Below are positions 1 through 39,247 of a stretch of DNA of 64,000 nt, in pieces. Each line of letters begins with the position of its first letter. The first letter of the stretch is position 1. The position numbers and the translations under genes were made by a program. The stretch is from positions 62,001 to 126,000 of the forward strand of contig JAUXUQ010000007.1 in the NCBI GenBank assembly GCA_030680605.1. The letters run 5' to 3'. This stretch comes from Gammaproteobacteria bacterium (GTDB taxonomy: Bacteria > Pseudomonadota > Gammaproteobacteria > SURF-13). The notes beneath the pieces were generated by a model. The model had not been told where the DNA came from. It did not search any database and was given only the letters and a program-made list of their open reading frames with translations.

Positions 1-383
1 GTGCCGCGCAAATGGCACTGGTCACACCTCTCAAGGATGGCATGAATCTGGTCGCCAAGGAATACTGTGCATGCTCTAACGACGAGGACAGCGTTTTGAT
101 TCTCAGTGAGTTTGCTGGTGCCGCTGCCCAGATGCAGAAAGGCGCGCTGCTGGTAAATCCCTATGATATTGAGGGCGTCGCCGATGCCATCCACCAAGCC
201 TTTATCATGGATCTTGATGAACGCCGAACCCGCATGCGCCGGTTGCGACGCTCCATCAGGAACCAGGATATTTTTTGGTGGGTGGACTCATTTTTGCGTG
301 CAGCGATCGCGCAGGACATGGCTGCCTTCCCGGTATTGGCGGACTATGTGCCCCGGGACGATATTGGCGACACCCCTCTCTGA
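1..383 (+). CDS. otsA: Trehalose-6-phosphate synthase, C-terminal end (5' truncated by window edge)
   Basis: This is the last 126 codons of a GT20 glycosyltransferase that joins a nucleotide-activated glucose to glucose-6-phosphate to give trehalose-6-phosphate in the cytoplasm. The reading frame is open from base 3, so the gene begins outside the window. The stretch [17 protein letters not shown] is the family signature near the nucleotide-sugar site, followed by the SEFAGAA segment and the VNPYD segment typical of OtsA C termini. Its phosphatase partner OtsB is not adjacent but lies near 38,483-39,247 on the other strand, so the pair is split by about 38 kb. The gene ends 33 bases before the convergent end of tamB. 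The identification is secure; the rest of the enzyme and any upstream neighbours are not visible. Confidence 0.93.
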
Positions 384-416
384 GCAGGACGAATCGTTGG
401 ACAGGCATGCAGCCGC

Positions 417-3400
417 CTAGTCAAAGCTGAAGCTGTAAAAAAGATCTACAGCACTCTCCTCTCCCGTCTGCGTGCGCACTGACAGACGCTCGGTCAACGT
501 GTAGTTAATCTTCGCCAGATTGGATGCGCCTGCCAACCCCTGCTCGAACGTCAGGTAGGCCCGCGATGAAAGGCGTTTCCCCATTGTCAGCACGGCGTTC
601 TCGACACCGCCCGCGCCTGACAGGGAAAACTCATCCAGCCCGGCGGCGTGAGCTATTTTTGCCTCCAGCGAAACCGATTCACCCTGCGCAAGTAATGCAC
701 CCGCCGCTGCTTGCAACGCACCAAACTCTCCGCCGCTGGTTTTTTCCAGCCCGTGCCCGAGTACCAGCCATGACAATTTTTCGCTGTCGGGTACAGATGG
801 TATGGATGTCAGCCTCACCTGCGGTACCTGCGCCGTACCACTAATGGCAACGCCTGCCTCCACCGGCAGGTTTTTGCGCAGGGCTACGATGTTGAGGCCG
901 GGATTATCAATCGGCCCAATAAAATTCAGAATGCCACGCTCAATCGAGAGACTCTGGCCATACGCCGAGTACCTGCCCTTGGCCACCTGTATCTTGCCGG
1001 AAGCGGTGGGCGCGGTTTTTCCGCTGGCGTGCACCTTCACGGCACCGACAAGCTGCGCATCCACACCCTTTCCCTTCAGGTAAAACCGGTCACCAAGATC
1101 GAGGTCTATATCCGCTATAATGGCATAAGGTGCTTTTCTGTTCTCCACTGCGTCAGGCTGTCCGAGCACCACGACATCCTCGCTCAAGCTTGGTGCATCT
1201 TCCTCCGGAAGATCGATCAGGCCGCGGTCAATCCTGAGCTTGGCGGACAGGCCCAACTTCCCGGCATGCAATCTTGCATCGCCATTCCCACTCACTATCA
1301 ACAGCCGGTCAGGTCGGCTCAGCAGCTCAAGTTGCTTGGCCACAAGCGCGACCTCGACCTCAGGCTCGCCAGACTCCCAGCTGACGCCGCCCTTGCCGCT
1401 CACACTCCCTGCGCCACCCTGCACATCAAAGTGTCCTGCCAACTGGTTGCTGCTATCCATGCTGGCCTGTAAATTACCTTGCCTGAAACTGATGCCATAC
1501 TCAGGGTAGTCGAACTTGAGGCCATCTATTTTAAGCTCTCCGGAAAGATTGGGCCTGCTCACGGTTCCTTGCGCACTCATGCGTACTTTCACTGCGCCGT
1601 CTATCCCCATCTGCTTTCCCAGCAGTGGCGTGATCCAGGCGATGGACGGCATATTGGCATCCGCATCCAGTATTAGCGCGGCATCGCCGACAATTCCCCA
1701 CACACCGTCTTTCTGTGCCAGACTGCTTTGTATGCGGGCCGTTATGGAGCCGAGGGTGGTACCTGCCAGATCCAGTTCAGTTGTCAGTTGGTTATCTACC
1801 ACTGCAGTTTGCAGCGCAAGGCGTGTCAGTCCCAGGGCTGTATGTGGCTCCGTCAACATCGTCACGTCGCCCTGGTCACGCCACAGCACAATCTCACCAT
1901 TTAACTTGTCGCTTGCCGACAGCGCCCACTTCCCTCCAAATATCAGCGTAGTCTGCGCATGTAACGGCTGCTGCGTCATCCTCAGAAACTCGGCACCGCG
2001 CAACCCCGCCAGCACCCCATGACTACTCATCCGTCCGTCACTGTGCATCAATTCTCCGATACGTATTTCACCGCCCGCAAAAGTAACGGATGCTCCTGTA
2101 AGAGTAAACTTTCGCCGCTCCAGCGTCAGTGTCGCCGGGGCCTTGAGCATCGCAGGGTAGCGTCCGTGGTTCTCAAGGCTCGCCACTGTACCTGTCCAAG
2201 CACTGCCCTCTCCCCAGGCACCGTTGAATGTGGCGCGCATGTCCATGATTTTATTGCGCGCTGAAAACCCGATCTCGTGGGCAGTACGCCGCCCCGTGGC
2301 ATTTATCAGCACCTGCTCAATCTCCAAACCTGCACTGCGATAACCGTGTAGCTCTGCCTTCAGCGCCAGCGGCCCGTCCAAGCCCTGTTCGAGCTGCCCA
2401 CTGGCCGCGAACTGCGCGACGTGGTGCGCTCCATCCCAGTCAAGATTGCCTGCGTTGATATCAAATGTACCGGCTGTTTGTTGCAGGGTTCCTGCCAGCG
2501 TGCCTGTGGCCGCAATTCGCCCGCCAAAACGCGGCCCGACCCAGGCACCCACATCTGCCGCATTCAGACGCCAGTTCAACACGTCGCCGGGCTCACCGAA
2601 GGCACCATTGACAGCGAACCTGTCAGCACCCAACTGCAGAGCCACATCGGCATCCCAAAGACGCTGCATGGCAACAGTCGCGCCGCCCTTTCCGCTCAGT
2701 GGTCTGTTCCGGTACTGACTGTCCGCGATGGTAACCTGCAATGTCGATTGCAGCACAGGCTGTAATTGACCCGTTGCAGTAAAGCGTGCATTGATTGACG
2801 CTGCCGGGTAATCCCCGAATCTTGCGGGGTCAAATTTTATTAGCGTGCCTTCAGCCTGGAACTCGCGTGCCTGTGCAAGCTTCAGTGCCCCCTGAAGCGC
2901 CAGCTCACTGTCTGCAGACGAAATGCGTGCCGACTTGATTTCCACTACAGCGTCACGATGCAGAGCATCAAGCTGGATGCGATACTGCTCCTGTCCAAGG
3001 TCAGCCCGCACAATATGTGTTGTCCCTTCAACAGCCACCTGTACCTTGCCCGCCAGCTGGGTGGGTTTGAGTGTGCTGTGTATGCCGCGCAGATTGAGCC
3101 CTGTAGTGGTCAGGTCGAAACTCAATTTCCCTTGCTGCAAACCACCTGCGCCTGAAAACCGGCCCGCCTCCGCCAAATCCAGCTGAAGTTCGCCGAAGGC
3201 AAGCTTGTCGAACGTACCCTCAAATACTGCCTGTAATTGCTTAAATGGTATTCGCGCACCATCCAGCGTGCCGTGTGTCGCATTCACCACGCCTACTACA
3301 CCCTGAAAAATATCTGGAGATTTTGCTTGCAGCGTAACATCAACAGCGACGTCGGCTTGAGGCAAGTCTGCCCCGAACTGCTGCGGATTTATGTGCTGTG

Positions 3401-6546: not shown

Positions 6547-6565
6547 TCATAGCGGTCACGAACAA

Positions 6566-6590: not shown

Positions 6591-6617
6591 TCACGCGCGC
6601 ATCAACGGGAGAGCCTC

Positions 6618-8233: not shown

Positions 8234-8437
8234 TCACATACGGCGCCTGCGGACAATGTGACTATACAGAAAGGCGCCCAACAGCATGCCCACGATCAAC
8301 ACACCGAGAATCAGCAAGGCACGCGACATCGCCACTGTCCACAGCAGTAAACGCACTTCTACTACCGTGGTATTCTGGACAATGAATACTGCCACCAGGC
8401 TGACCAGAACCAGCATCAGGATCAGCTTCGGACTCAT
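8234..8437 (-). CDS. lapA: LapA domain (DUF1049) small membrane protein
   Basis: A 67-residue protein with two hydrophobic helices (about residues 4-22 and 38-60), the family signature [14 protein letters not shown] and a basic tail (HIVRRRRM). LapA-domain proteins are inner-membrane proteins; E. coli LapA works with LapB to control lipopolysaccharide assembly. No lapB is nearby, and the frame sits downstream of glgX with a four-base ATGA overlap, so it is translationally coupled to a glycogen gene rather than placed with lapB. It is shorter than E. coli LapA and lacks most of the C-terminal region, so the exact role is uncertain. Confidence 0.75.
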
Positions 8438-10608
8438 TGCATATTATCTCCGCCATGTGTGCCGTGGGACACGGTACTGGTCTCGCGTAACAGTACGCAG
8501 GAACGGCCCGCGAGTGGATATGCCTGCCCCGGCATGGTGAGTCCATCTCGTTCCAGTCCCGCACCCCGACTCGTGTCGAACTCCCGCAGCCATCCTGTAT
8601 CCGGTTTGAAGCCGGGCACCACAAATGGCACTACATCATGGTGCGCATTGAGCAGGAGTATGAAGCTGTCATCCTCCAGCGGCACGCCGCGCTCATCGAC
8701 GTCACTCACACCCTCGCCAGCGATATACAACCCCAGGCTGCGGGCATAAGATGCCTGCCATTCCTCGTCCGTCATTTCCTCACCGTCTGGCTTTAGCCAG
8801 ACGATATCCTTGAGGGCGCTGCCACGAATACGCCTGCCGTGAAAAAACGAGCGGCGGCGGAACACCGGATGTGACTTGCTCAAATCAATGACACGTCGCA
8901 CAAACTCAAACAGCTGCCTGTCTTCAGGCTTTATGTCCCAGCTTACCCAGCTGAGTTCGTTGTCCTGGCAGTAGGCATTATTGTTTCCCATTTGCGTGCG
9001 CCCTGCACAGTCGCCTGCAACAAACATCGGCACGCCCTGCGAGAGCAGCAGCGTCGCCATGAAATTACGTTTCTGTTGTGCGCGCAGGGCCGTAATTTCC
9101 GGGTCATCGGTTGGGCCCTCGACACCACAGTTCCAGCTCCGGTTGTTGTCGGTACCGTCGCGGCTGTCCTCACCATTCGCCTCATTATGTTTATGGTTGT
9201 AGCTCACGAGATCGTTGAGTGTGAAGCCGTCGTGCGCGGTAACGAAGTTAACGCTGGCATGAGGCCGACGCCCACTGTGCGCATACAGATCACTCGAGCC
9301 GGTCAGCCGGTGCGCAAGATCACCTATCAGCCCCCCCTCTCCCTTCCAGTAGGAGCGCACATCATCACGGTAACGGTCATTCCACTCCACCCAACCCACA
9401 GGGAAGTTGCCTACCTGATAGCCGCCCTCACCCAGATCCCATGGCTCGGCGATGAGTTTGACCTGGGACAGCACCGGGTCCTGGTGGATGATGTCAAAAA
9501 ATGCCCCCAGCCGGTCTACGTCATGCAGCTCACGCGCCAGCGCGCTGGCAAGATCAAAGCGGAATCCGTCCACATGCATCTCCTGCACCCAGTAGCGCAG
9601 GCTGTCCATGATCAACTGCAACACGCGCGGGTGCAGCATGTTGAGCGTGTTGCCACAACCGGTGTAATCCATGTAGTGACACGGATTATCGGCAACCAGC
9701 CGGTAATAGGCAGCGTTATCGATGCCCCGGAAGCTCAACGTGGGCCCGAGATGATTGCCCTCGGCGGTGTGGTTGTATACCACGTCCAGAATGACCTCGA
9801 TACCGGCTGAATGCAGCTTCTTGACCATCGTCTTGAACTCTGACACCAGACCGGTCGCCGAGTAGCGCGGCTCCGGCGCAAAGTAGCTTATCGAGTTGTA
9901 ACCCCAGTAATTACGCAGACCCTTTTCGGCCAGGTGGCGGTCGTCTACAAAGCCGTGTATCGGCATCAGCTCCACTGCCGTAACACCCAGCCGCTTCAGG
10001 TAATCAATGATGGGGGCGCTTGCCAGGCCCAGATAGGTACCTCGCAGTGTCTCCGGCACATCGGGATGCAGCTTGGTAAAGCCCTTCACATGCAGCTCGT
10101 AAATAATGGTGTCATGCCAGGGTATGCGCGGTGGCTTGTCATCGCCCCAGGTGAATGCGGGATCAATGACCTGGCACTTTGGCATGCCCGGTGCGCTGTC
10201 CCTCCGGTCAAGGACGAGGTCTGCACCACTGGCGCCGACACGATAGCCGAAATGGGCGTCGCTCCAGCGCAGCGCACCGACGATATCCTTTGCATAGGGA
10301 TCGAGCAACAGCTTGTTGGGGTTGAAACGGTGGCCTTCCGCAGGCTTGTAGGGTCCGTGTACGCGGTAGCCGTACGGTAACCCGGGGCGCGCATCCGGCA
10401 AGTAACAATGCCATACCTGATCCGTCTGCCAGCGCACGGGGATGCGGATGATCTCTCGCCGTCCCTTGTGATCAAACAGGCACAACTCTACCTTTTCCGC
10501 ATGCTCAGAGAACAGCGCAAAGTTCACACCCTCTCCATCCCACGTAGCACCCAGAGGATAAGGACGGCCTGGCCAAACACTGAGGTTGCTGGTCGTAAAC
10601 TGATACAT
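8434..10608 (-). CDS. glgX: Glycogen debranching enzyme GlgX (isoamylase-type)
   Basis: A 724-residue GH13_11 enzyme that hydrolyses alpha-1,6 branches in glycogen or limit dextrin. It has an N-terminal CBM48 (residues 10-150: [21 protein letters not shown]) and a (beta/alpha)8 domain with the nucleophile in DGFRFDLAS, the acid/base Glu in IAEPWDLG and the third acid in [12 protein letters not shown]. Length is typical. Released short linear maltodextrins would feed MalQ, TreY and TreZ encoded elsewhere in the window. The stop overlaps lapA (ATGA at 8434-8437). Confidence 0.96.
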
Positions 10609-10752: not shown

Positions 10753-11436
10753 TCAGCCATGCCCGGAATCATTGCGGTTAGGCCACCACCGCTCCAGCAG
10801 CCCTGCCGCCCACTTCTGGCCACCGATACCAAATGCTATCGCCAGCGCGAGCGCCACACCCGCCAACAGGATCAGGAAACTCTGCCGCACGATGTCCACA
10901 CCGATACTGATCTGGTCTAGCGCAATCAGCACCACGAAGATCAGCGTGGCAAAACGCGCCAGCCTGCCGAGCAGCTCTGCATCCTGTAACTCTACATTTT
11001 TACCAAAGGTAGTAACAGTAGCGTCTATAAAACGGGCAAAATAGGCACCAAATGCCAGCACCAATACTGCCACAATCACATTGGGGATAAACAACGTTAC
11101 CTTGCCAAGCAGATCGGTGACATGGGTCAGCCCAAGGCCATTGAAAGCCACTACCAGTGCCGCCAGAATCACCAGCCAGTAAATAAGCAACCCAAGAATA
11201 TCGACTGTATCTGTTTTGGCTCCACCCTGTTGTAAAAAGCCATCAACACCTGCGCGCTCTGTCAGCACCTGAAAATTGATTGCCCTGAGCGCCCTGACTA
11301 CGGCGAACCTGATAATCTTCGCGAACAGCCAACCTGCCACCAGTATGGCTATGGCAACGATCAACTTCGGCAGGAATTCACCCAACTGGATCATAAACAC
11401 ACGTACTGGCTCAAGCATAATATTGACCTGTTCCAT
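10753..11436 (-). CDS. Small-conductance mechanosensitive-type membrane protein (conserved TM-helix repeats)
   Basis: A 227-residue protein with a first hydrophobic helix and basic edge typical of this family (LPKLIVAIAILVAGWLFAKIIRFAVVRAL), then further hydrophobic segments around residues 80-105, 115-140, 160-180 and 185-205. The repeated pattern FIPNVIVAVLVLAFG resembles the conserved-TM-helix proteins that align with the MscS membrane part. It lacks the large cytoplasmic MscS domain. The start at 11436 has GGAGAG upstream. It sits between trehalose and glycogen genes, which fits a role in osmotic adaptation, but channel activity is not shown by sequence. Confidence 0.75.
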   Translation of the reverse strand: MEQVNIMLEPVRVFMIQLGEFLPKLIVAIAILVAGWLFAKIIRFAVVRALRAINFQVLTERAGVDGFLQQGGAKTDTVDILGLLIYWLVILAALVVAFNGLGLTHVTDLLGKVTLFIPNVIVAVLVLAFGAYFARFIDATVTTFGKNVELQDAELLGRLARFATLIFVVLIALDQISIGVDIVRQSFLILLAGVALALAIAFGIGGQKWAAGLLERWWPNRNDSGHG

Positions 11437-11498
11437 CGCTCTCTCCTTCACTTGGTTTGATATTCACAGCCGGCATCCAGAGCCTTGCTGCGGACCCC

Positions 11499-11542: not shown

Positions 11543-14500
11543 CTATTTGCCCTGGTTCACCACTTCCAGTATCCCGCGCAACGGGATAGCCACCCATTCA
11601 GGCCGATTGGCAAGTTCATAACGTAACTCATACAAGGCCTTCTCCAGCACAAACAACTCCAGCAGCTGTTTCGCGTCTCCCCATGCCCCATAAAGCCCGG
11701 AGTCACGCGTAGTTTCTTCATAAGCATCAAGAAAAGCCCGCCGTACCTCAGCCTCCCATATCTTCCCGTATGGCTGGAAGGCGGCAAAATCATCTGGCCG
11801 TTCGGTGCTGAGGCGAGCAAGCATGGTATACAAGGCATAATTGAATGAGCGCAGCATACCGGCGACATCTTTCAGTGAGGAATGCTTCTGGCGACGTTCA
11901 CTCAACGGCCGTGCTGGTTCGCCTTCAAAATCAATAATCATGAAGTCATTTTCAACCAGCAACACCTGTCCCAGATGATAGTCCCCGTGGTAGCGGGTCT
12001 TGATTGCGGCGACTCGCGATGGCACACAGGTCTCAATGTGTTTGAGCATATCCTTGCGCCTTGATAGCAGGCTATCCGCAACGGCTTGCACTTCTACATC
12101 CAGACTGGAACGATTGCGCTCAAGCTGGTCCAGCGTTGCTACCGCCTCTTCGCGTACCTGCCGCATCCAGACATCCAGGTCGTCCTGCTCGATCGGCTCC
12201 GGGTCAAAGGCCGGATCACCTGTTGTAATAGACAGGGCCTTGTGCAACTCAGCAGTACGTACACCCAGCGTATGCACCAGGGCCAGATAGCCGCCATGCG
12301 CCTCGCCGGACAATTCAGCCTCTGTGCAGCTACAACTGTACTCCAGAAAACGCTCCAGATAATTCAGCGTTGTGCTCCAGCCGTCACCCTGATTGCTGAC
12401 GTAACCCTGCAGTACTGCCAACGTGCATTTGCTGCCGTCTTCAACCTCATACTCGACCACCCCAGCCACGGGCACGGCGTGCTTGAAGTGGGCAACTTCC
12501 GTCAGAAAGCGGCCTATTTCAACTTCGGGATTAGTCCCTGTGTGCAGTCGCCGGTACCCCTTGAGGAAGAGATTATCGCCCAGCTGTACCGTAGTATTAC
12601 TGCTCTGAGCTCCTGGCGTATGCATGGTCAAGCCGGAGATGTCTTCGCCCACCAGCTTGGCAAATACACTGGTAGGCAGAAAGTTGATGAGGCCTCTTTC
12701 GCTCACCAACTTGAATCCTTCACTCATGGCCTCTACCAGAGCACGGCAGAACTCTACGTCAGCAAAGGCATCACCCATAATACCGATACGCGCTTGCTGG
12801 CGTACCCTGGCTATTGTGGCCGGCATCAGCCTGTCCATGCGTTCGTCGTCATCCTCCCATGCCAGTGCCAGCGGCAGAAAGTACATTGATGCGTCTGCTG
12901 CGGCAGCGCCCTCTACGCGGAAGATACCCATCAGCCAGTTGGCTTGTTCACCACCCCACTCAACATGGTCCGTCAGTGCTACACACTGGGTAGCCACGTC
13001 CTTGGCTGCATACCAGCGTTGGCCTGCAACAAAATGCGGCAGCACTTCTGTCTCAAGTTGTTCCCGGGCCTTCTCCGCCATGACAATGCGCCAGGGAATG
13101 ACGCGGTCACGGAAAAAGCTGAGCCAGCCATCGAACAACACCACCACCGGCAGCTCCTCGCGCTGCAAACGCTCCTCATGCCACTCGGGCACTTCCCCAC
13201 CCTTGGCAAGGCGGAACCAGTAAAACCCATAGCCCGGCAGCGTCAGCAGATAAGGCAATTCGCCAATGGGTGGGAAAGGCGTACGCCCCATCAGTTCCAG
13301 CGGCACACTACCCTTGTAGTTTGAAAGATCCAGCTCCACAGGCTGCGCCGTGCGCGCAAGGTTATTCACGCAGAGCGTGACTTCTGAATCGTACTCCCGC
13401 AGAAAGGCGAGGATCTTGCGGTTTCCTGGTCGCAAAAAGATCAGTTTGCCGCGACCAAACGCCTGGTAGGTTTTGCGCACTGCCAACAGGCGTCGCATCC
13501 AGTTAAGCAGTGACGAAGGATCACGCAATTGTGCCTCCACGTTCACCGCCTCATAACCACGCACGGGATCCATAACCGGAGGAAGGAACAGGCGCTGCGG
13601 GTCAGCGCGGGAAAAGCCTGCGTTACGGTCGGGGCTCCACTGCATCGGTGTACGCACACCATTACGGTCACCGAGATAAATGTTGTCACCCATGCCTATC
13701 TCATCGCCATAATAGATAATGGGCGAGCCCGGCATGGACAATAACAGGCTGTTCATCAGCTTGATCTTCTCGTGATCGTTGTCCATCAGTGGCCCCAACC
13801 GGCGCCGGATACCCAAATTGATGCGCGCGCGCGTATCAGCAGCGTACATCTGATACATATAATCACGCTCTTTACTGGTAACCATCTCGAGCGTGAGCTC
13901 ATCATGGTTGCGGAGAAAGATCGCCCATTGTGAGTTGGCTGGTATCTCGGGCGTTTGTTGCATGATCTCTACTATTGGATGCCGGTCCTCCTGGGCAATT
14001 GCCATGTACATGCGCGGCATCAGGGGGAAATGGTAGGCCATGTGACATTCGTCACCTTCGCCAAAATAGCCACGCACCTCCTCCGGCCACTGATTTGCCT
14101 CGGCGAGGAACATGCGGTTCTTGTAGTGCTTGTCCAGTTCTGCCCGCATGTATTTTATGACTTCATGCGTCTCCGGAAGATTTTCATTTGTTGTGCCTTC
14201 ACGCACACATAGATAGGGGATGGCGTCGAGACGTACGCCATCAACGCCGATATCGAACCAAAAACGCATCACCCGCATCACCGCCTTCACGACATGGGGG
14301 TTATTGTGATTAAGATCCGGCTGGTGGGAGAAGAAGCGATGCCAGTAATAAGCCTTGGCTACATCATCCCAGGCCCAGTTTGATTTTTCGGTATCGCTGA
14401 ATATGATCCGGGTGTCTTCAAACTTCTTTACCGTGTCGCTCCATACGTAATAATCACGTTTGGCAGAGCCGGGAGGCGCATGACGAGCCGACTGAAACCA

Positions 14501-14866
14501 TGGGTGTTGATCAGATGTGTGGTTGACCACCAGCTCCGTGATCACGCGCAAACCACGACGATGGGCCTCGCTTATCAGGGTGCGAAAATCCGCCATCGTC
14601 CCGTAGTCGGGGTGAACGTTACGGTAATCGGATATGTCGTAACCATCGTCACGTTGCGGCGAGGGATAAAACGGCAGCAGCCAGATCGTGTTTACACCCA
14701 GATCGTTAATATAATCCAGCTTCGATATCAGCCCGGCAAAGTCCCCCACCCCGTCACCGTTGCTGTCCATGAAGGCTTTTACATGCACCTCATAGATAAT
14801 GGCGTCCTTATACCACAAGGGATCGTCACTGATCGCCGAGGAAACCTGTTTGGCTTTAGCGTGCAT
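11543..14866 (-). CDS. treS: Trehalose synthase-maltokinase fusion (TreS-Mak/Pep2)
   Basis: A 1107-residue bifunctional enzyme. Residues 1 to about 560 are a GH13_16 trehalose synthase that interconverts maltose and trehalose (nucleophile DGVRLDAIPYL, Glu in FLAEANQWP, Asp in FLRNHDELTLEM). From about residue 600 (FVAGQRWYAAK) it is a maltokinase that makes maltose-1-phosphate with ATP; the kinase motif HGDYHLGQV (about residue 960) and the following FMIIDFEGEP are both present. The product is the donor for GlgE, encoded 9 bases upstream in the same operon. The fusion is a known form in GlgE-pathway bacteria. Both halves appear intact. Confidence 0.95.
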   Translation of the reverse strand: MHAKAKQVSSAISDDPLWYKDAIIYEVHVKAFMDSNGDGVGDFAGLISKLDYINDLGVNTIWLLPFYPSPQRDDGYDISDYRNVHPDYGTMADFRTLISEAHRRGLRVITELVVNHTSDQHPWFQSARHAPPGSAKRDYYVWSDTVKKFEDTRIIFSDTEKSNWAWDDVAKAYYWHRFFSHQPDLNHNNPHVVKAVMRVMRFWFDIGVDGVRLDAIPYLCVREGTTNENLPETHEVIKYMRAELDKHYKNRMFLAEANQWPEEVRGYFGEGDECHMAYHFPLMPRMYMAIAQEDRHPIVEIMQQTPEIPANSQWAIFLRNHDELTLEMVTSKERDYMYQMYAADTRARINLGIRRRLGPLMDNDHEKIKLMNSLLLSMPGSPIIYYGDEIGMGDNIYLGDRNGVRTPMQWSPDRNAGFSRADPQRLFLPPVMDPVRGYEAVNVEAQLRDPSSLLNWMRRLLAVRKTYQAFGRGKLIFLRPGNRKILAFLREYDSEVTLCVNNLARTAQPVELDLSNYKGSVPLELMGRTPFPPIGELPYLLTLPGYGFYWFRLAKGGEVPEWHEERLQREELPVVVLFDGWLSFFRDRVIPWRIVMAEKAREQLETEVLPHFVAGQRWYAAKDVATQCVALTDHVEWGGEQANWLMGIFRVEGAAAADASMYFLPLALAWEDDDERMDRLMPATIARVRQQARIGIMGDAFADVEFCRALVEAMSEGFKLVSERGLINFLPTSVFAKLVGEDISGLTMHTPGAQSSNTTVQLGDNLFLKGYRRLHTGTNPEVEIGRFLTEVAHFKHAVPVAGVVEYEVEDGSKCTLAVLQGYVSNQGDGWSTTLNYLERFLEYSCSCTEAELSGEAHGGYLALVHTLGVRTAELHKALSITTGDPAFDPEPIEQDDLDVWMRQVREEAVATLDQLERNRSSLDVEVQAVADSLLSRRKDMLKHIETCVPSRVAAIKTRYHGDYHLGQVLLVENDFMIIDFEGEPARPLSERRQKHSSLKDVAGMLRSFNYALYTMLARLSTERPDDFAAFQPYGKIWEAEVRRAFLDAYEETTRDSGLYGAWGDAKQLLELFVLEKALYELRYELANRPEWVAIPLRGILEVVNQGK

Positions 14867-19957: not shown

Positions 19958-21319
19958 TTATTCTCCTTTTGCTGCCAGTGGAATTACCGTTAGTAGAAGA
20001 CCTTTTTCACCAGTCACCCTGACGCTCAAACCTGGCGTCAATGGAGCCGTGCTGGATACCCGCCAAATTTCACCCTGTATCTGCGCCCAGCACTCGCTGC
20101 CCGTGCACGTCACCACCACTCCCTCACTGCCGATGATCTGCCTGCCCCCACTCACCAGCGGGCGGCGATAGGATTTGACTGCGAGGCCACCGATTGCCGC
20201 CAGCACAATGGCGCTGGTCACGGCCAGCGTACCAATCAGATAGGGCGAAATACCGTAACCGGGCACATCCGTATCCATCAGCACGACGGCGCCAACGACA
20301 AACGCCACCACACCCCCCAACCCCAGTATGCCAAAACTGGGAACGAAAGCTTCCGCCACCATAAAGGCCAGCCCCAACAGAATCAGCGCCAGGCCGGCAT
20401 AGTTAACCGGCAGCATCTGCAAGGCATACAGCGCCAGCAGCAGGCTGATGGCACCAATCACGCCGGGCACCACCGCACCGGGGTTGGCCAATTCAAAAAA
20501 CAGACCATAAATCCCAATCATCATCAGAATCAATGCGATATTGGGGGCCGTGATAACGGCAAGAAATTTGGTGCGCCAGTCCGGTTCGTGCTTGATCTGC
20601 GGCGCGGCCACCGTATCCAGCGTGACTTCTCCACTCGGCACACTGAGTTTGCTCCCATCTACCTGCACCAGCAGTTGGCTGAGGTCAGGTGCAAGATAAT
20701 CAATCACCTTCAGCTGCAAGGCCTCGGTGGCGGACAGGCTGACGGCCTCACGCACGGCCTGCTCTGCCCATTCAATATTGCGGCCGCGCAGTTGTGCCAG
20801 CCCGCGGATATAGGCGGCAGCGTCGTTCACCGCCTTCTCGCCCATGGCGTCCCTGGGAATTTCAGCGGGTGACCCGGCTTTGTCCGTGTCCTTGCCGGGC
20901 TTTTGCGGCGGCGCACCGGTGCCGGGCGCACCTATCGCCACCGGCGTGGCCGCACCCAGATTGGTGCCAGGCGCCATGGCGGCAATGTGGCTCGCATACA
21001 GGATATAGGTACCAGCGCTGGCGGCGCGTGCGCCACTCGGTGCAACGTAGCTTGCCACCGGCACCGGCGAGGCCAGTATGGCCTTGATGATCTCGCGCAT
21101 CGAGGTATCCAGCCCGCCCGGAGTATCCATGCGCAACACGACGAGCTGCGCCCCTTCCCGGGCGGCGCGTTCGATCCCGCGGGTGATGTAGTCGGCACTG
21201 GCGGGGCCTACCGCACCGTCCAGCTGCAACAGCATGACCGGCGCGGGGGTAGCCGCTGGCGCTGCCATCGCAAACCCTGCCAGCAGTACTGTCAGCCACA
21301 CAGCCCTATTCCGCTTCAT
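19958..21319 (-). CDS. NfeD-family membrane-bound serine protease (long form)
   Basis: A 453-residue protein: signal peptide (residues 1-22), ClpP-like protease domain (about 28-225) with the serine in [11 protein letters not shown] and the lysine in [13 protein letters not shown], four or so membrane helices (about 250-375) and a C-terminal OB-fold NfeD domain (about 385-453, [11 protein letters not shown]). Long-form NfeD proteins are paired with slipins, as here, and are implicated in membrane protein quality control. Start 21319 is chosen over the in-frame codon at 21367 because GGAG lies seven bases upstream and a signal peptide begins there. Confidence 0.93.
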
Positions 21320-21407
21320 GTGACACTCCTTCGCCATGTTCGTGACTGCAGATACGGCCTGCGGCAATTACCGTCGGCCCACACGGTAACCCTGTGACCC
21401 GGTATCC

Positions 21408-22688: not shown

Positions 22689-25079
22689 TCAGGCCTGCCA
22701 CTTCCAGTCACGGATCTCGGGCATGTCCTGACCATGACGCCGGATGTATTCATCATGCTCTATCAGCCGGTCACGCACAAACTGCCTGAGGTAGGCCGCC
22801 TTGTAACCGAGTGTCGGCACACGATCCACCACATCGGCCACCAGATGAAAGCGGTCAAGGTCGTTACGCACCGTCATGTCAAACGGCGTGGTGGTGGTAC
22901 CTTCTTCCTTATAGCCGCGCACATGCAGATTATCGTGGTTGGTGCGGCGGTAGGTCAGTCGGTGAATCAGCCAGGGATAACCGTGGTAGGCGAAGATGAT
23001 CGGCTTGTCGGTGGTAAACAGCGTATCAAAGTCCTTGTCAGACAAGCCGTGCGGGTGTTCCTCGCGCGGCTGCAGGGTCATCAGGTCGACGACATTGAGC
23101 ACACGCACCCGGAGGTCAGGCGCATGCTGGCGCAGCAGACTGACTGCCGCTAGTACCTCGAGGGTCGGCACATCACCCGCCGCCGCCATCACCACATCCG
23201 GCTCGCCGTCGCGGTCGTTGCTGGCCCATTCCCAGATGCCGATGCCCGCCGCACAGTGCTTGATGGCGGCGTCCATCGTCAGCCACTGCGCCTGCGGCTG
23301 CTTGCCCGCGACGATCACATTGACCAGATTGCGCGACCGCAGGCATTGATCCGTGACACAGAGCAGCGTGTTGGCATCGGGCGGCAGGTAGACGCGAATG
23401 GTATCGGCCTTCTTGTTGGCCACATGGTCAATGAAACCGGGATCCTGGTGTGAGAAACCGTTGTGATCCTGACGCCAGACGTGCGACGTCAGCAGATAAT
23501 TCAACGAGGCGATGGGCCGCCGCCAGGGAATCTCGCGCGTAACCTTGAGCCACTTGGCGTGCTGGTTGAACATCGAATCCACAATGTGGATAAAGGCCTC
23601 ATAGCAGGAAAAAAATCCGTGACGGCCGGTGAGCAGATAGCCTTCGAGCCAACCCTGACAGGTGTGCTCGGACAGGATTTCCATCACCCGCCCATCCGGC
23701 GCCAGATGATCGTCCTCCGGTAGCTGCTCGGCCATCCAGGCACGATCCGTCACCTCGAACAACGCACCCAGCCGATTGGAGGCCGTCTCATCAGGACCGA
23801 CCACGCGAAAGTTGCGTGCCTTCAGGTTGCGCTGCATCACGTCGCGCAGCAGTTGGCCCATCACCCGCGTGGCCTCAGCCAGCACAGCACCGGGTTGCGG
23901 CACCTCCACCGCGTAGGCGCGAAAATCCGGCAAGCGTAAATCCTGGAGCAACAAGCCGCCGTTGGCGTGCGGGTTGGCGCCCATACGGCGTGCGCCGTCC
24001 GGCGCGAGCGCGGCCAGGTCTGGCATGAGCACGCCATCGGCGTCAAACAGTTCTTCGGGCCGGTAACTTTTCAGCCACTGCTCCAGCAGCTTCAGGTGTC
24101 CGGACTTGGCGGAGAGATCGGCAAACGGCACCTGATGCGAGCGCCACGAACCCTCGGTCTTTTTGCCGTCGACCTCTTTCGGCCCGGTCCAACCCTTGGG
24201 CGTACGCAGGATGATCATCGGCCAGCGCGGACGACCGGGCTTGCCCAGCTCACGCGCATGGTGCTGAATGGTTTTGATCTCGGCGATAACCTTGTCGAGC
24301 GTGGCCGCCATCTGCTGGTGCATCACCTCAGGATCATCACCTTCGACAAAATGCGGCTGGTAGCCATAGCCGACAAACAGGCTCTCCAGTTCGGCATGCG
24401 GGATACGTGCGAGCAAGCTGGGGTTGGCAATCTTGTAGCCATTCAAATGCAGAATCGGCAGCACCGCGCCATCCTGCGCCGGATTGAGAAATTTATTCGA
24501 ATGCCAGGCGGCCGCCAACGGGCCGGTCTCGGCCTCACCGTCCCCCACCACGCAGGCTACAATCAAATCCGGATTATCAAACGCCGCACCAAAGGCATGC
24601 GCCACCGAATATCCCAGCTCGCCACCCTCGTGGATAGAGCCGGGCGTCTCCGGCGCCACGTGGCTCGGTATGCCGCCGGGAAATGAGAACTGGCGGAACA
24701 ACTGCCGCATGCCTTCGGCGTCGGGCGATACGTTGTGATAGACCTCGCTGTAACTGCCCTCCAGCCAGGTGCTCGCCACCAACCCCGGTCCGCCGTGACC
24801 GGGTCCGGCGACATAGATGACGCTGAGGTCTTGCGCCTTGATGACGCGATTGAGATGGGCATAGATAAAGTTCAGCCCCGGCGTGGTGCCCCAGTGACCG
24901 AGCAGGCGCGGCTTCACGTGCTCGATCCTCAGCGGCTCGCGCAGCAGCGGATTATCCAGCAGATAAATTTGCCCGACCGAGAGGTAATTTGCGGCGCGCC
25001 ACCAGGCGTGTATCAGCCGCGCCTGCTCGGCGGAAAGTGGGGTTTGCGCTGCTGCCATCCGTATCGCTGTCTCACTCAT
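22689..25079 (-). CDS. xfp: Xylulose-5-phosphate/fructose-6-phosphate phosphoketolase
   Basis: A 796-residue thiamine-diphosphate enzyme that splits xylulose-5-phosphate (and usually fructose-6-phosphate) with phosphate into acetyl phosphate and glyceraldehyde-3-phosphate (or erythrose-4-phosphate). Landmarks are the N-terminal [26 protein letters not shown], the cofactor site GDGEAETGP and the segment ANPSLLARI. Length is typical. GGAGAGGG precedes the ATG. It lies between pgm (14 bases) and treT (27 bases), with ackA further upstream, so acetyl phosphate can pass to acetate kinase. Confidence 0.96.
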
Positions 25080-25093: not shown

Positions 25094-27881
<2,788 letters not shown>

Positions 27882-31484: not shown

Positions 31485-34400
31485 TTAGTTTTCAGGCTGA
31501 AGCCGTGCCCGCAGTAACGCCAGCGGGAAACGCGCCAGCAGGCGCTCGGCGGCAAACAGCGTGCGTCCCTCGTGCAGTTCGCTGCGGATGATTTCTCCGC
31601 TCAACACGTCGGTGTAATCAACGCCTGCGGTCTGCGCGGGTGTTTCAATCCAGGTGTCACTCCAAACCGCAGCCACCGGGTGCTGTGCGCTGTCACCCAG
31701 CAGGCGCGCAAACCAGTGCGTCGTCACGATCACCACGACATCGTTTTCGTGACGCCGCGCATAGGCGCACACATGCCCGGCCTGCGCGCCTTCAACCGCC
31801 AGTGGCTGGTAGCTGCCCAACTGGAATAGTTGCGGCAACGCGTGACGCAGGGCAAGTGCCTTCCACGTCAGATACAGTTTTATGCGTCCATCTTCCATGT
31901 GATCCAGCATGGCTTGCAACTGCGCGGCGGGGTTTGAGTGGATGGCGTCTTCGACCTCTGCCAGCCACTGCTGGCGCAGGCCATAATCCACGGGGCGGCG
32001 ATTGTCGGGATCGACCAGGCTGAAATCCCACAGCTCCGAACCCTGATAAATATCCGGCACGCCCGGCGCGGTAAGCTTGAGCAATGTCTGGCTCAGGCTG
32101 TTGAACAGGCCGAAGCGGGCAATGCGCTGTTTGAAGGCCCACAGGTCGGTGACGAACGGGCTGGCCACCGAACCCAGCAGCGCGCGCACAAAGTGCTGCA
32201 TCGCTTCTTCATAGCCGGTGTTGGGATTGATCCAGCTGGTGTGCACCTTGGCCTCTTTGATGGCCTTCAGCATGTAGGCCTCGATGCGTTCGCGCAATGC
32301 CGCGAGGCCTGTGTCATCCAGCACCTCCAGCGGCCAGACGCCCACCAGGGTCTGATAGAGCAGATACTCGTCATTGCGGCTAGGCACCCAGTGCTCGTCC
32401 AGCCGGCGTTTTTTATGGCGATTGAGTCGACTCCAGCGTGCCAGCCTCTGCCACCACTGTTCCGGCACTTCCGACAGCACGTTGATGCGTGCGCGCACAT
32501 CTTCGCTGCGCTTGGCATCATGGGTGGAGGTGGCGAGCATGGTATGCGGCCAGCGCTTGAGCCGCTCCTGATTGGCGTTGTGGAAGGCCGCCACCGATAC
32601 CGAATAGCGGCGCGGATCGCCGCCCACGTCGTTGAGCGACACCAGCCGGTTATAGATGTAGAACAAGGTATCTTCCATGCCCTTGGCCATGACCGGGCTG
32701 GTGTATTGCTGGAAGCGCATGGCGAAGGTGACCGCCATCTGGCGATAGGCTCCCGACTTGCCTTCCAGCGCCTGCAGCAGCAGGATGTCACGGATGAAAT
32801 CGTAAATGCTCACGTCGGCCGCCAGGCTGCGTTTCTTGGCCTGCGCCACCGCCCATTCCACGTAGCGCCGGTCTTCCTCCGAGACGCCCGCGCCGGTGAC
32901 ATAGGTGCGGTAGACCGGGAAACATGCCACTACTTCGCTCAGGGCATTGCGCAACGTGGTCAGGGTGTAGTCGCGGGTGTGCCAGTCTGATTCAGAAATG
33001 CGGTCGAGCTCGCTCGCGAGCACATGCAACTCGCTGGAAAGCGCGGTACCCATGATGAGTTTCTTGCGTTCGTAGAGCAACTCGTCGAAGCTCTGCGCGT
33101 GCCCGGTGAAGCGCCGGTAGATACGATCAAACTCGCGCTCGGACGGGCCATAGATCTGGAGGCCGTTGACCAGCACCGCAAAGTCATAGCCGGTGGTGCC
33201 GTGAATCGGCCACTCCTCCGGCAGGCGCTCGTAGTGCGCCAGGATTTTTTCCGCCACGATATACAGCGGCGCGCTGTCAGCGGGCGTGTCGCTACCGTTA
33301 TGTTGCGCCGTCAAAACGGCAGCCTGTTGTTGCAGTTGCGCAAAGTACGCTGCCGGGTCATAGAGGCCGTCGGGATGGTCGATGCGCAGGCCGTCGACCT
33401 TGCCTTGCGCCACCAGCTCGAGTATCACCCGATGGGTGGCCTCAAACACGTCGGGATTTTCCATGCGCAGGCCGGCCAGTTCGTCGACATCGAAGAAGCG
33501 CCGGTAATTGATTTCGTCGCTCGCCACGCGCCAATAGGCCAGCCGGTAGGCCTGCTGCTCCAGCAACTCGTGCAGCAGGTTGAAGTCAGCCGTCTCGCCG
33601 CCGCCATTAAAGGTGGCGACATTTTCCTCGATAAACTGGCGAACAGTCGGCGCCGCGCGCGCCAGTTCGGCCAGATGACGCTTGTGTACGGCCTGATCGC
33701 GATTACGCTCGCGGATACGTTCTTCAGTGCTGACATGGTGCGGTGGCAGATTGCGGAAGGCGGTAATCAGGGTCTGGAGTTCCTGTTGCTGCGGATTGTC
33801 CTCGCCCATCTGCCGCTGCAAACGCTCCAGCGCGTGACTCAGGATTTGCGCGTAGTTTTTGGGGTCGATGGGAAACAGGTGCGTGCAATAGTGCACCGCA
33901 AGGCTGCCAGCCTCGGCATCAAACGCAAGCTTGAGCTCGCCCTTCTCCAGCACCTTGCCGTAATAATCGCCCAGCACCGGCAGCAACACCTTGCCACGCA
34001 GCGCGTCTTTCTCGGGGCGCCAGTCGATATCGAAATAGCCGGCGTAGGCCGATGCCCGCCCGTTCTCCAGCACGTCCAGCCACCACTGGTTGTCGTTGCC
34101 GGCGACGCCCATGTGATTGGGCACGATGTCCAGAATCTGCGCCATGCCGGCCTTGTGCAGCGCCTGCACAAAGTCTTCGTAGTCGTCGGTCGAGCCGATC
34201 TCGGGATTGATGCTGGCGTGGTCGACGATGTCATAACCGTGCTGGCTGCCGGCGCGCGCCTTGAGGTAGGGCGAGGCATAGGCGTGACTGATGCCGAGGC
34301 GGGCCAGATATGGCACCAGTTCGCACGCTTGGGAAAAGGTAAAGTCGCGATTGAACTGCAAGCGGTAGGTGACACGCGGAATGCTGGCAGTGCGCAACGG

Positions 34401-36623
34401 CACCGGTGGTGCAGCGCCCGGCACAAGGCCGCGCGTGTCACGCAAGGTAACGGCCAGTGCGCGCCAGCGCGCATCGCCCCATATCTCCTCAAGCGTGAGA
34501 GCGAGTTTGTAACGCCAGTTGGGCCGTTGGTCGGTCGTGCCGGGGAGGTTGACCTGATGCCGCTGGCCGATGATGTCTTCGAGCTGCACCAGCATCACCT
34601 GTGACGCGGTGCGCGCCAGATAGTGATGGATGGCGTGTGCCAGTGCCGGTGTCATTTCCGGCACCGTCTGCGGATCAACGCTCATATCCGCCGGCAGCAG
34701 GCCTTCACGTTTGAGCGCATACAGCAGACGGGCACGGTCTTCGGCCCGCCCTACCATCTGCTGGTCACGCACTGCATCCGACGGAAACAGGTGCAACACA
34801 TCGCGTTCGTGCAGGTCATCGCCCAGCCAGAAACCCGCGAGTGTCGGCAGGTCGTGCGTGCTCGCCGACACCACCGCTTGCGCGGTGTAGCCGGACGGCG
34901 GCCTGAATCCGGCCTGGTCGTCTTTCTCAAAATAAAACAGGCGGTAGGACAACACGCCGAGGGGCAAGAGCGCCGTGCGCACCACCTCCGGCACGGTGCC
35001 CAGGTCTTCGCCGATGACAAAGCAATGATTGCGCTGGCTCTCCAGCGCAAGAATACCCAGCAGATCCTCAAACGCGTAGTGCACATACGCACCCTCATCC
35101 GGCGTGCCCTTGCCCGGCACCCAGAACAGCCGCATCAAACCCATGACATGGTCGATACGTAATGCACCGGCATGGCGCATGTTGGCGCGCAGCATCGCTA
35201 TGAAGGGGGTATAGCCTGCCTCCACCAGCGCCTCGGGTATAAACGGCGGCAGGCCCCAGTTCTGACCATGCAGGTTGTAATCGTCCGGCGGCGCGCCGAT
35301 GCTGGCGTCGAGCGCATACAACTTCTGATTGGCCCATGCCTCGGCCCCGCCGCGGTCTACGCTCACGGCAAGGTCCGCGTACAGGCCTATGCCTAAATGC
35401 GCCTGCTCTGCGCGACGGCCTACAGCGCCAAGCTGTTGGTCGGCCTGCCATTGCAGGTACTGGAAAAATTCGATTTGCTCGCGCTGAGTCTGGGAAAATT
35501 TCTGCACCGCTGTGGATGCAGGATCACGATACTCCTGCGGCCAGACCGGCCAACCCCAAATGGTTGCGTCGCTGGCATGAAAGTGCGCCTGCAAGGCCTC
35601 GAACAACGCGTGGCGGTAGAGTGTGTCACCCGCCTGCTCGACAAATGTCCGGAATGCAGTGCCGCGCTCGCTGCGTGGTTGCAGGTGGTGTTTGCAGAAA
35701 TGTTTATAGAGATGCCGCAGTAGTTGCAGCTTGGTTTTCGAGACCCCCGCGTAGTCCACCAGCTCCGATTCACGCAGCGCCTGCAGGCGCGCCTGAAATG
35801 CCGGGTTGGCAACCTCCTTGCGTGCCGGTTGGCATTCAGAAAAATCAGGCACCGCTTCAACATCGAGGTACAACACGTTGAGGTACAGTCTGCTGGACGG
35901 GCTGTAGGGACTCGCATGTTCAGGGTTATGCGGGAACAGCGCATGCAACGGATTGACGCCGACGACATTGACGCCCTCGCGGGCGCGCTGCCCGGCTATC
36001 CGTTGCAGATCGGAGAAGTCGCCGATCCCCCAGTTGCGTTCCGAACGCAGCGCATAAAGTTGCAGAGCCGGGCCCCAGACGCGCCCACCTTCCGCCAACA
36101 CCGGAGGCTTATAACACCGGTCCGGCACAATGATCAGGCTCAGCCGGTCGGTGACCTGACCGGTGCGGCGCAACTCGAAGCGGTGGTATCCCGGCGGCGG
36201 TGTGAGCGGTAGCGGCAGCGCGTAGCGCAGGTACAGCACGTCATCGATAGTGGCGCGCTCCAGCACGTCGAGTTCATCCGGTCGCACCCGGCCTGCATGC
36301 TGGCGCCCATCCTCCAGCCGCAGCGTCCATTCCAGCAACTCTTCTGCCTGGCCACCTGCGAGTGTAAGCGTCAGCTTGACCGGCGCAGTGCTGTTGCGCA
36401 CGACCTGCACCGGCGCCAGCGTACGCTGCCATGAGCGCTGCCTGCGCAGCGCGAGCGCGTGCGCTATCTCCTTGTCGCTGCCGGCTGCAACACCCATCGC
36501 CTGCAGCAGCGCACGCCGGGTTGCCAGCGCAACCTCATGCCGGTTGCCCCATACGTCATGGTATTCGGTTTCAATGCCACACAGGGCACACAACTGGTCG
36601 AGGTCACTGACACGGGACATCAT
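31485..36623 (-). CDS. 4-alpha-glucanotransferase fused to malto-oligosyltrehalose synthase (MalQ-TreY)
   Basis: A 1712-residue two-enzyme protein. Residues 1 to about 735 form a GH77 amylomaltase with its N-terminal accessory domain, nucleophile ALRIDHVMGL, acid/base Glu in IGEDLGTVP and Asp in STHDLPTLAGFW; it disproportionates maltodextrins. From residue 748 (PRVTYRLQFNRDF) to the end lies a complete GH13_26 TreY with DGLRIDHPDGLYDP, VAEKILAHYERLP and STHDAKRSEDVRAR; it turns the reducing end of maltodextrin into a trehalosyl unit. The join is a short linker with no stop or frameshift. It starts directly after the treZ stop (TAG then ATGATG), so TreZ can release the trehalose. In relatives malQ and treY are often adjacent separate genes, so the fusion probably arose by loss of the intervening stop. 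Confidence 0.95.
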   Translation of the reverse strand: MMSRVSDLDQLCALCGIETEYHDVWGNRHEVALATRRALLQAMGVAAGSDKEIAHALALRRQRSWQRTLAPVQVVRNSTAPVKLTLTLAGGQAEELLEWTLRLEDGRQHAGRVRPDELDVLERATIDDVLYLRYALPLPLTPPPGYHRFELRRTGQVTDRLSLIIVPDRCYKPPVLAEGGRVWGPALQLYALRSERNWGIGDFSDLQRIAGQRAREGVNVVGVNPLHALFPHNPEHASPYSPSSRLYLNVLYLDVEAVPDFSECQPARKEVANPAFQARLQALRESELVDYAGVSKTKLQLLRHLYKHFCKHHLQPRSERGTAFRTFVEQAGDTLYRHALFEALQAHFHASDATIWGWPVWPQEYRDPASTAVQKFSQTQREQIEFFQYLQWQADQQLGAVGRRAEQAHLGIGLYADLAVSVDRGGAEAWANQKLYALDASIGAPPDDYNLHGQNWGLPPFIPEALVEAGYTPFIAMLRANMRHAGALRIDHVMGLMRLFWVPGKGTPDEGAYVHYAFEDLLGILALESQRNHCFVIGEDLGTVPEVVRTALLPLGVLSYRLFYFEKDDQAGFRPPSGYTAQAVVSASTHDLPTLAGFWLGDDLHERDVLHLFPSDAVRDQQMVGRAEDRARLLYALKREGLLPADMSVDPQTVPEMTPALAHAIHHYLARTASQVMLVQLEDIIGQRHQVNLPGTTDQRPNWRYKLALTLEEIWGDARWRALAVTLRDTRGLVPGAAPPVPLRTASIPRVTYRLQFNRDFTFSQACELVPYLARLGISHAYASPYLKARAGSQHGYDIVDHASINPEIGSTDDYEDFVQALHKAGMAQILDIVPNHMGVAGNDNQWWLDVLENGRASAYAGYFDIDWRPEKDALRGKVLLPVLGDYYGKVLEKGELKLAFDAEAGSLAVHYCTHLFPIDPKNYAQILSHALERLQRQMGEDNPQQQELQTLITAFRNLPPHHVSTEERIRERNRDQAVHKRHLAELARAAPTVRQFIEENVATFNGGGETADFNLLHELLEQQAYRLAYWRVASDEINYRRFFDVDELAGLRMENPDVFEATHRVILELVAQGKVDGLRIDHPDGLYDPAAYFAQLQQQAAVLTAQHNGSDTPADSAPLYIVAEKILAHYERLPEEWPIHGTTGYDFAVLVNGLQIYGPSEREFDRIYRRFTGHAQSFDELLYERKKLIMGTALSSELHVLASELDRISESDWHTRDYTLTTLRNALSEVVACFPVYRTYVTGAGVSEEDRRYVEWAVAQAKKRSLAADVSIYDFIRDILLLQALEGKSGAYRQMAVTFAMRFQQYTSPVMAKGMEDTLFYIYNRLVSLNDVGGDPRRYSVSVAAFHNANQERLKRWPHTMLATSTHDAKRSEDVRARINVLSEVPEQWWQRLARWSRLNRHKKRRLDEHWVPSRNDEYLLYQTLVGVWPLEVLDDTGLAALRERIEAYMLKAIKEAKVHTSWINPNTGYEEAMQHFVRALLGSVASPFVTDLWAFKQRIARFGLFNSLSQTLLKLTAPGVPDIYQGSELWDFSLVDPDNRRPVDYGLRQQWLAEVEDAIHSNPAAQLQAMLDHMEDGRIKLYLTWKALALRHALPQLFQLGSYQPLAVEGAQAGHVCAYARRHENDVVVIVTTHWFARLLGDSAQHPVAAVWSDTWIETPAQTAGVDYTDVLSGEIIRSELHEGRTLFAAERLLARFPLALLRARLQPEN

Positions 36624-38471: not shown

Positions 38472-38482
38472 ACTCTATTCCC

Positions 38483-39247
38483 TTATGATGGAGTCTGGCA
38501 GGCGCCTGTTTGCAAGGCATGCCACTGCACATAGTGTCGCAGCCAGTCCAGCACCTCGCCGGCATCCTCCAGTCGCCCACGCGCCAATGTGGCACCCTCG
38601 CCTACCTTGATCGCGTAACCCCCCATCCAATTGACTATTCTGAACCCGTCTTCGTCCGTTACATCATCACCCACAAATACCGGCGTATGCCCGCTGAACG
38701 GGGCAGTCTGCATGAATGTGGCAATGGCCTGCCCCTTGTCCCGGCCACGTGGCCGTATCTCGAACACCTTGTTGCCTGCCATGAGCACAAAATCATCCCC
38801 AAGCTGCCGCAGCAGATGCGACATTAATGCCTGTGCTTCACCCTCGAGCGCTGGCGCCATACGGTAGTGCAGCGAGAGCGTGAGACCCTTGTCCTCCAGC
38901 AGCACACCCGTGTGCTGGCGCGCAAACTGCTCCAGTGCGGGCCTGATGGCAGTGAACGCCTGCGCGTGTGTATCCTGCCGGCTTACCTGTCCATTCGACA
39001 GGCGCGATTCTGCGCCGTGTTGTCCGGCGGCAGGCAGTTGCAGTGGCGCAAACAGACGATCAAGCATTGCAATCGGCCGGCCGCTGATCAGTGCCACTGG
39101 CGCAATACAGTGCAGTGCTGCCAACGTGTCGATCAAGCCCGGGCCGCACTGCACATCATCCGGATGCTGAACGATGTCGAGCAAGGTGCCGTCAACATCG
39201 AGAAAAAAGGCCCAGTTCAGACCAAAGGCGGGTAAATGTTGCGCCAA
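38483..39247 (-). CDS. otsB: Trehalose-6-phosphate phosphatase
   Basis: A 254-residue HAD phosphatase that dephosphorylates trehalose-6-phosphate. Motif I is FFLDVDGTLLD near residue 15, motif II lies in VALISGRP, and motif IV is FVGDDVTDEDGF. A TTG start at 39247 with AAGG about nine bases upstream is used because no ATG precedes motif I. It heads the otsB-treZ-malQ/treY operon rather than sitting with otsA, whose 3' end is at the left edge of the window. Confidence 0.93.
   Translation of the reverse strand: MAQHLPAFGLNWAFFLDVDGTLLDIVQHPDDVQCGPGLIDTLAALHCIAPVALISGRPIAMLDRLFAPLQLPAAGQHGAESRLSNGQVSRQDTHAQAFTAIRPALEQFARQHTGVLLEDKGLTLSLHYRMAPALEGEAQALMSHLLRQLGDDFVLMAGNKVFEIRPRGRDKGQAIATFMQTAPFSGHTPVFVGDDVTDEDGFRIVNWMGGYAIKVGEGATLARGRLEDAGEVLDWLRHYVQWHALQTGACQTPS

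What the first reader, a model, noticed from the sequence alone, without database searches (positions are those of the whole stretch)
1..39247. Four trehalose routes and the GlgE glucan pathway in one 39-kb stretch
Seen: otsA (3' end), otsB, treY (in a fusion), treZ, treS (in a fusion) and a TreT-type gene, plus glgE, glgB, glgX and pgm. Known: OtsAB, TreYZ, TreS and TreT are separate routes; only TreP-type phosphorylase is missing from the common list. Inference: trehalose is both a stress solute and a carbon store, and the routes can interconvert trehalose, maltose-1-phosphate and alpha-glucan. Having four on one segment is rare redundancy. The otsA-otsB pair is split by about 38 kb and sits on opposite strands.
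Basis: partly seen in the sequence, partly recalled or inferred. Interest (0 to 1): 0.72.

Follow-up and report, generated by a model that had tools for sequence, protein, structure and literature searches.

The report
Clustered trehalose and glucan genes
A small gammaproteobacterial genome carries on one 40-kb stretch almost every known bacterial enzyme set for making trehalose and turning it into glycogen-like glucan; it is an unusually complete collection of known building blocks, apparently acquired by this lineage, rather than a new kind of system.

Summary
OtsA (3' end), OtsB, a MalQ-TreY fusion, TreZ, a TreS-maltokinase fusion, GlgE, GlgB, GlgX, Pgm and a TreT-type GT4 enzyme lie within the first 39 kb. 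OtsA and OtsB are 38 kb apart on opposite strands. All four routes together are rare: 2 of 185 class genomes (about one per family), and only this one has them on one 40-kb stretch.

The interpretation needs changing. TreS is fused to maltokinase in a glgB-glgE-treS/mak operon, so it most likely consumes trehalose (GlgE pathway), as shown in Pseudomonas aeruginosa. The GlgE and TreYZ blocks recur together in other families, and nfeD-band7-glgB-glgE-treS/mak-msc is syntenic in a Burkholderiales MAG. Five relatives of the same family lack these genes, so the set looks acquired.

The most open part is the TreT gene. Its best fold matches are TreTs (TM up to 0.94), but it belongs to a well-supported clade apart from the solved TreTs and sits in an operon with phosphoketolase, phosphoglucomutase and acetate kinase. 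It could run backwards, burning trehalose to acetate and ATP. That is untested.

New variant of a known kind; modest interest.

The parts
1..383 (+). 3' end of otsA (whole gene at G000:C7 about 60.8-62.4 kb, preceded by an mscS gene)
   Evidence: PF00982 454 bits; ORF end computed; mscS
8434..10608 (-). glgX, glycogen debranching enzyme
   Evidence: TIGR02100 1085 bits; 72% identical to GlgX of G024
10753..11451 (-). small mechanosensitive-channel-type protein; follows treS/mak also in the Burkholderiales MAG (59%)
   Evidence: PF05552; synteny
11543..14866 (-). treS-maltokinase (pep2/mak) fusion
   Evidence: TIGR02456 923 bits, TIGR02457 496 bits
14876..16918 (-). glgE, maltose-1-phosphate maltosyltransferase
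   Evidence: PF11896, PF21702; RVDN and AEAF motifs
16885..18840 (-). glgB, branching enzyme
   Evidence: TIGR01515 909 bits, NF008967 973 bits
19185..19955 (-). Band 7/SPFH protein; upstream of glgB also in the Burkholderiales MAG (78%)
   Evidence: PF01145; synteny
19958..21367 (-). nfeD, likely membrane partner of the Band 7 protein
   Evidence: PF24961, PF25145, PF01957; 57% and same order
21408..22661 (-). treT-type GT4 glycosyltransferase (clade distinct from solved TreTs)
   Evidence: PF21269, phmmer to 6zj4/2x6q 1e-109/1e-103, tree, AlphaFold model TM 0.84-0.94 to TreT
22689..25079 (-). xfp, phosphoketolase
   Evidence: NF003619 1524 bits, PF09364/PF03894/PF09363
25094..26824 (-). pgm, phosphoglucomutase (true start probably downstream of the listed one)
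   Evidence: NF005737 942 bits from residue 33
26763..27881 (-). ackA, acetate kinase family
   Evidence: TIGR00016 317 bits, PF00871; 55% identical to the ackA upstream of glgE in G154
31485..36623 (-). malQ-treY fusion
   Evidence: NF011077 2346 bits, TIGR02401 1024 bits, TIGR00217 526 bits
36624..38471 (-). treZ
   Evidence: TIGR02402 700 bits
38483..39247 (-). otsB, trehalose-6-phosphate phosphatase
   Evidence: TIGR00685 159 bits vs cut-off 68; HAD motifs DVDGT and GDDVTDED

Best explanation
This is a trehalose/alpha-glucan interconversion region built from known modules that the lineage probably gained by horizontal transfer and gathered on one stretch. (a) malQ-treY-treZ-otsB and otsA make trehalose: TreYZ from glucan released by GlgX and MalQ, OtsAB from nucleotide-glucose and glucose-6-phosphate. 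(b) glgB-glgE-treS/mak drains trehalose through maltose and maltose-1-phosphate into branched glucan. (c) ackA-pgm-xfp-treT links a TreT-type enzyme to glucose-phosphate interconversion and to the phosphoketolase/acetate-kinase ATP step. The routes therefore work as a loop with different entry and exit points rather than as four redundant makers. Shown here: gene identities, order, rarity, absence from close relatives, synteny with distant relatives. Inferred: flux directions (from P. aeruginosa work), transfer as the cause, and the role of the TreT operon.
For: Gene identities. In G001-G005 of the same family TreS, GlgE, TreY, TreZ and GlgX are not found; they have GlgA, mostly GlgB, and, in four of five, OtsA. 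The window GlgB is 65-76% identical to GlgBs of G087, G124, G090 and the Burkholderiales MAG, but 54-56% to those of its own family; its OtsA is 57-62% to G154/G178 but 35-36% to its family. Blocks recur: G154 ackA-glgE-treS-glgB-glgX-treZ-malQ/treY in about 18 kb, G124, G090; in Burkholderiales bin78 otsBA, nfeD-band7-glgB-glgE-treS/mak-msc and xfp within 20 kb, and treT near glgX-treZ-malQ/treY elsewhere. Flux directions were worked out genetically in P. aeruginosa (PMC8084333). The genome also has two GlgC-type genes, GlgA, pgi and zwf, so the surrounding pathways are largely present.
Against: No expression, metabolite or enzyme data. GC content does not mark an island: neighbouring tamAB is as low as the GlgE block. 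Mobile-element genes were not looked for systematically. Loss in the other family members instead of gain is possible, though sequence distances argue against it. Only five relatives of the family are held and one is 76% complete. Gene trees were made for TreT only.
Confidence: 0.72

Rival explanations
1. One reading: four parallel, redundant trehalose-making routes kept together for stress tolerance.
For: All four gene sets are intact. OtsA is next to an mscS gene, and a mechanosensitive-channel-type gene sits in the GlgE block, consistent with osmotic stress.
Against: TreS is fused to maltokinase and lies between glgE and msc in one operon, the arrangement that in P. aeruginosa consumes trehalose (PMC8084333). 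Routes co-occur far above chance, suggesting complementary rather than redundant roles.
Confidence: 0.12
2. The TreT operon is catabolic: TreT splits trehalose with NDP into NDP-glucose and glucose, and Pgm, phosphoglucose isomerase, phosphoketolase and acetate kinase turn the sugar phosphate into acetyl-phosphate, acetate and ATP. (This concerns one part and can hold together with the best explanation.)
For: treT, xfp, pgm and ackA are head to tail with gaps of 27 and 14 bases and an overlap (coordinates). xfp is near treT also in L012, L046 and L057 (3 of 54 loci of the clade, 0 of 26 outside). A GalT-like nucleotidyltransferase gene is near treT in 12 of 54 loci of the clade and 0 of 26 outside, while otsA/otsB neighbours are concentrated outside. 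TreT is described as reversible (PMC7549927). pgi and zwf are in the genome.
Against: xfp alone is not significantly enriched between the two groups (p = 0.55). The window has no galT, so use of the NDP-glucose is unassigned. Glucokinase was not looked for. Neighbour counts ignore phylogeny and contig length.
Confidence: 0.25
3. The TreT-like protein is not a TreT but a GT4 of another specificity (for example a trehalose phosphorylase or another disaccharide synthase).
For: It lies in a 48-sequence clade (100/100 support) separate from the clade with the two solved TreTs, and scores 378 against a 775 cut-off in the Thermococcales TreT equivalog. No member of its clade with known activity was found here.
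Against: Full-length match to solved TreTs, E326 equivalent conserved (E310), TreT_GT1 domain, TM 0.84-0.94 to TreT against about 0.65 to the next GT4.
Confidence: 0.12

Closest known systems
Pseudomonas aeruginosa PAO1 trehalose/alpha-glucan operons (PMC8084333)
   Same: glgE, treS/pep2 fusion and glgB as one group; treZ, malQ, treY and glgX as a second; both in one genome.
   Different: PAO1 has no otsA/otsB; its second operon includes glgA and separate malQ and treY. Here malQ-treY are fused, otsB precedes treZ, glgX is with the GlgE block, glgA is about 60 kb away on the contig, and a treT-xfp-pgm-ackA operon lies between.
TreT, trehalose glycosyltransferring synthase (P. horikoshii 2x6q, T. 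uzoniensis 6zj4)
   Same: Domain architecture, fold (TM 0.84-0.94), conserved motifs including the E326 position.
   Different: 42-45% identity, a separate bacterial/archaeal clade, operon with phosphoketolase and acetate kinase.
treT-otsB-mscS-otsA operon (G001, G154)
   Same: The window genome keeps the mscS-otsA part (mscS 52-59% identical).
   Different: Its treT and otsB are elsewhere and of other types (treT 43-44%, otsB 28-29%).
Burkholderiales bacterium bin78 (CP070661.1) loci
   Same: Same gene set, with nfeD-band7-glgB-glgE-treS/mak-msc in the same order and the closest full-length TreT (75%).
   Different: Two loci 1.4 Mb apart instead of one stretch; otsA is only 32% identical; no pgm or ackA match beside xfp.

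Membership tests
GlgE pathway (TreS-Mak-GlgE-GlgB) | TreS and maltokinase, GlgE and GlgB all present and adjacent | tested here: met
GlgE pathway (TreS-Mak-GlgE-GlgB) | Maltose-1-phosphate formed and used | not testable with these tools
   needs metabolite measurement
TreY-TreZ pathway | TreY and TreZ over curated cut-offs | tested here: met
   TIGR02401 1024 vs 499; TIGR02402 700 vs 539
OtsA-OtsB pathway | GT20 synthase and HAD-type phosphatase present | tested here: met
OtsA-OtsB pathway | The two genes adjacent or fused (usual, not defining) | tested here: not met
   38 kb apart on opposite strands
TreT (EC 2.4.1.245) | TreT_GT1 N-terminal domain plus GT4 C-terminal domain | tested here: met
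   PF21269 4.7e-55, PF00534 5.9e-26
TreT (EC 2.4.1.245) | Closest by sequence and fold to solved TreTs, clearly before other GT4 | tested here: met
TreT (EC 2.4.1.245) | Groups with enzymes of proven TreT activity | tested here: inconclusive
   separate clade, no characterised member included
TreT (EC 2.4.1.245) | Makes or splits trehalose with NDP-glucose/NDP | not testable with these tools
   needs enzyme assay
P. aeruginosa-type two-operon arrangement | glgA in the treZ-malQ-treY operon | tested here: not met
   glgA at G000:C7:37 kb, about 60 kb away

The most novel reading that the evidence does not exclude
A widespread, uncharacterised TreT clade works in the breakdown direction and, in this genome, feeds a dedicated trehalose-to-acetate ATP route (TreT, Pgm, phosphoketolase, acetate kinase) beside a GlgE/TreYZ storage loop.
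Probability: 0.22. Interest if true: 0.55.

Novelty: new variant of a known kind. Interest (0 to 1): 0.36.

Why it matters
It gives a natural case in which OtsAB, TreYZ, the GlgE pathway and a TreT enzyme sit together in a genome of only 1.87 Mb, so that making, storing and burning trehalose can be dissected as one network. It also marks an uncharacterised TreT clade, present in many bacterial phyla and in methanogens, whose gene neighbours differ from those of the TreT clades that hold the characterised enzymes.

Tried and rejected
GC as an island marker: rejected, since low GC continues into tamAB. Promoter and terminator scans: no more hits than shuffles, so no operon boundary is claimed from them. 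RNA elements: only a tRNA. Plasmid carriage of close TreT relatives: only 38-44% identical TreTs in haloarchaea and Streptomyces, none close. Another GT4 family for TreT: rejected. Organism name: not established; relatives are unnamed and no 16S search was made. Literature: no paper found on four co-localised routes in Gammaproteobacteria or on TreT with phosphoketolase; subscription papers, for example on Rubrobacter TreT, are not held, so an earlier report of four routes in one organism cannot be excluded.

Full report
Observation. The window is G000:C7:62001-126000 of a 1.87-Mb, 99% complete genome. In transcription order on the minus strand there are three groups: otsB, treZ and a malQ-treY fusion (38483-39247, 36624-38471, 31485-36623; 11 bases between otsB and treZ, treZ and malQ-treY abut); then ackA-pgm-xfp-treT-nfeD-band7 (27881 to 19185; ackA and pgm overlap, gaps of 14 and 27 bases around xfp, 40 between treT and nfeD); then, after 344 bases, glgB-glgE-treS/mak-msc-glgX (18840 to 8434). 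otsA ends at window 383 on the plus strand, convergent with tamB, and is preceded outside the window by an mscS gene. Promoter and terminator scans are at chance level, so the operon reading rests on spacing and strand only.

How rare. In a sample of 185 class genomes, about one per family, over-cut-off hits were TreT 7, TreY 11, TreS 11, OtsA 25 and GlgE 8. All four routes occur only in G000 and G154; seven more genomes have three. The routes are not independent: TreY and TreS co-occur in 9 genomes (0.65 expected), TreS and GlgE in 8 (0.48 expected), TreT and OtsA in 7 (0.95 expected). These figures ignore phylogeny, and a few OtsA hits are partial or odd (G046, G090, G098). G154 has its set on two contigs, so only G000 has it on one stretch in this sample; draft assemblies may hide others.

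Not inherited with the family. G001-G005 (same family; the only order relatives held) show no TreS, GlgE, TreY, TreZ or GlgX (G004 has one other alpha-amylase-family enzyme, G003 no hit at all). They do have GlgA, and all but G002 have OtsA. TreT is only in G001, 44% identical, in a treT-otsB-mscS-otsA operon. The window GlgB and OtsA are closer to those of distant families than to those of their own. Gain by transfer is the simplest reading; full gene trees were not made for these genes.

Recurring modules. G154 carries ackA-glgE-treS/mak-glgB-glgX-treZ-malQ/treY in about 18 kb; G124 and G090 carry similar clusters. The closest full-length TreT (75%) is in Burkholderiales bin78 (CP070661.1), where treT lies about 5 kb from glgX-treZ-malQ/treY and a second locus holds otsB-otsA, nfeD-band7-glgB-glgE-treS/mak-msc and xfp within about 20 kb. 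Among the loci held here, nfeD, band7 and msc matched only that genome besides the window, so how widespread the order is remains unknown.

Function. In P. aeruginosa PAO1, GlgA and TreYZ make trehalose, and TreS/Pep2, GlgE and GlgB turn it into glucan; trehalose protects against osmotic stress and glucan against desiccation (PMC8084333). The fusion and operon layout here match, so TreS is most likely an exit. OtsAB adds an entry that pseudomonads lack. The genome also has two GlgC-type genes (C1 and C7), GlgA, and a pgi-zwf group, by eye with gnd, next to glgA.

TreT. It has the TreT N-terminal domain, matches solved TreTs over its full length, whereas the next GT4 proteins match only over the C-terminal half, and its AlphaFold model (pLDDT 89.5) is TM 0.84-0.94 to TreT and about 0.65 to BshA, the next family. 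E326 of P. horikoshii TreT, mutated in entry 2xmp, corresponds to E310. In the tree it is in a 48-row clade with 100/100 support, spread over Chloroflexota, Myxococcota, Nitrospirota, Planctomycetota, methanogens and others, outside the clade with 2x6q and 6zj4. Loci of this clade have a GalT-like gene (PF01087) nearby in 12 of 54 cases against 0 of 26 for other TreTs, while otsA/otsB neighbours show the opposite (not corrected for relatedness, and loci not in the tree were assigned by identity). xfp is near treT in three further loci. This makes a catabolic role possible but not shown.

Verdict. A real, unusually complete and probably acquired collection of known modules. The four-route count is correct as gene content; redundancy is not the best explanation.

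Noticed in passing
L193:10318-10983, L090:366, L087:9328, L081:7679, L196:10422-11141: A DUF5752 protein gene lies directly upstream of treT in the clade that includes G154, G142 and several other phyla (PF19027 in L193); it may be a functional partner of that TreT type. Absent beside the window treT.
   Followed up: partly
window 39443-41254 (-): 603-aa protein that by eye looks like an N-terminal acetyltransferase (GNAT) fused to a histone-deacetylase-like domain; no NCBIfam match at 1e-20.
   Followed up: no
window 56812-59949 and 60089-62203 (-): Pyruvate dehydrogenase as two fusions: E2-E3 (1045 aa) and E1alpha-E1beta (704 aa).
   Followed up: no
window about 6270-7091 (+): A small cysteine-rich repeat peptide (CNGVNSCKG...) next to a DoxX-like membrane protein, resembling a bufferin-type metal-stress pair by eye.
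   Followed up: no
window 27881-28155: By eye, an inverted repeat CGGAGT/ACTCCG with a T run on the minus strand after the phosphoribulokinase gene (28156-29118), a possible terminator separating it from the ackA operon; the scan tool did not list it.
   Followed up: no
L028:1269 and L028:10001: A Dehalococcoidia locus holds two treT genes of different types about 9 kb apart.
   Followed up: no
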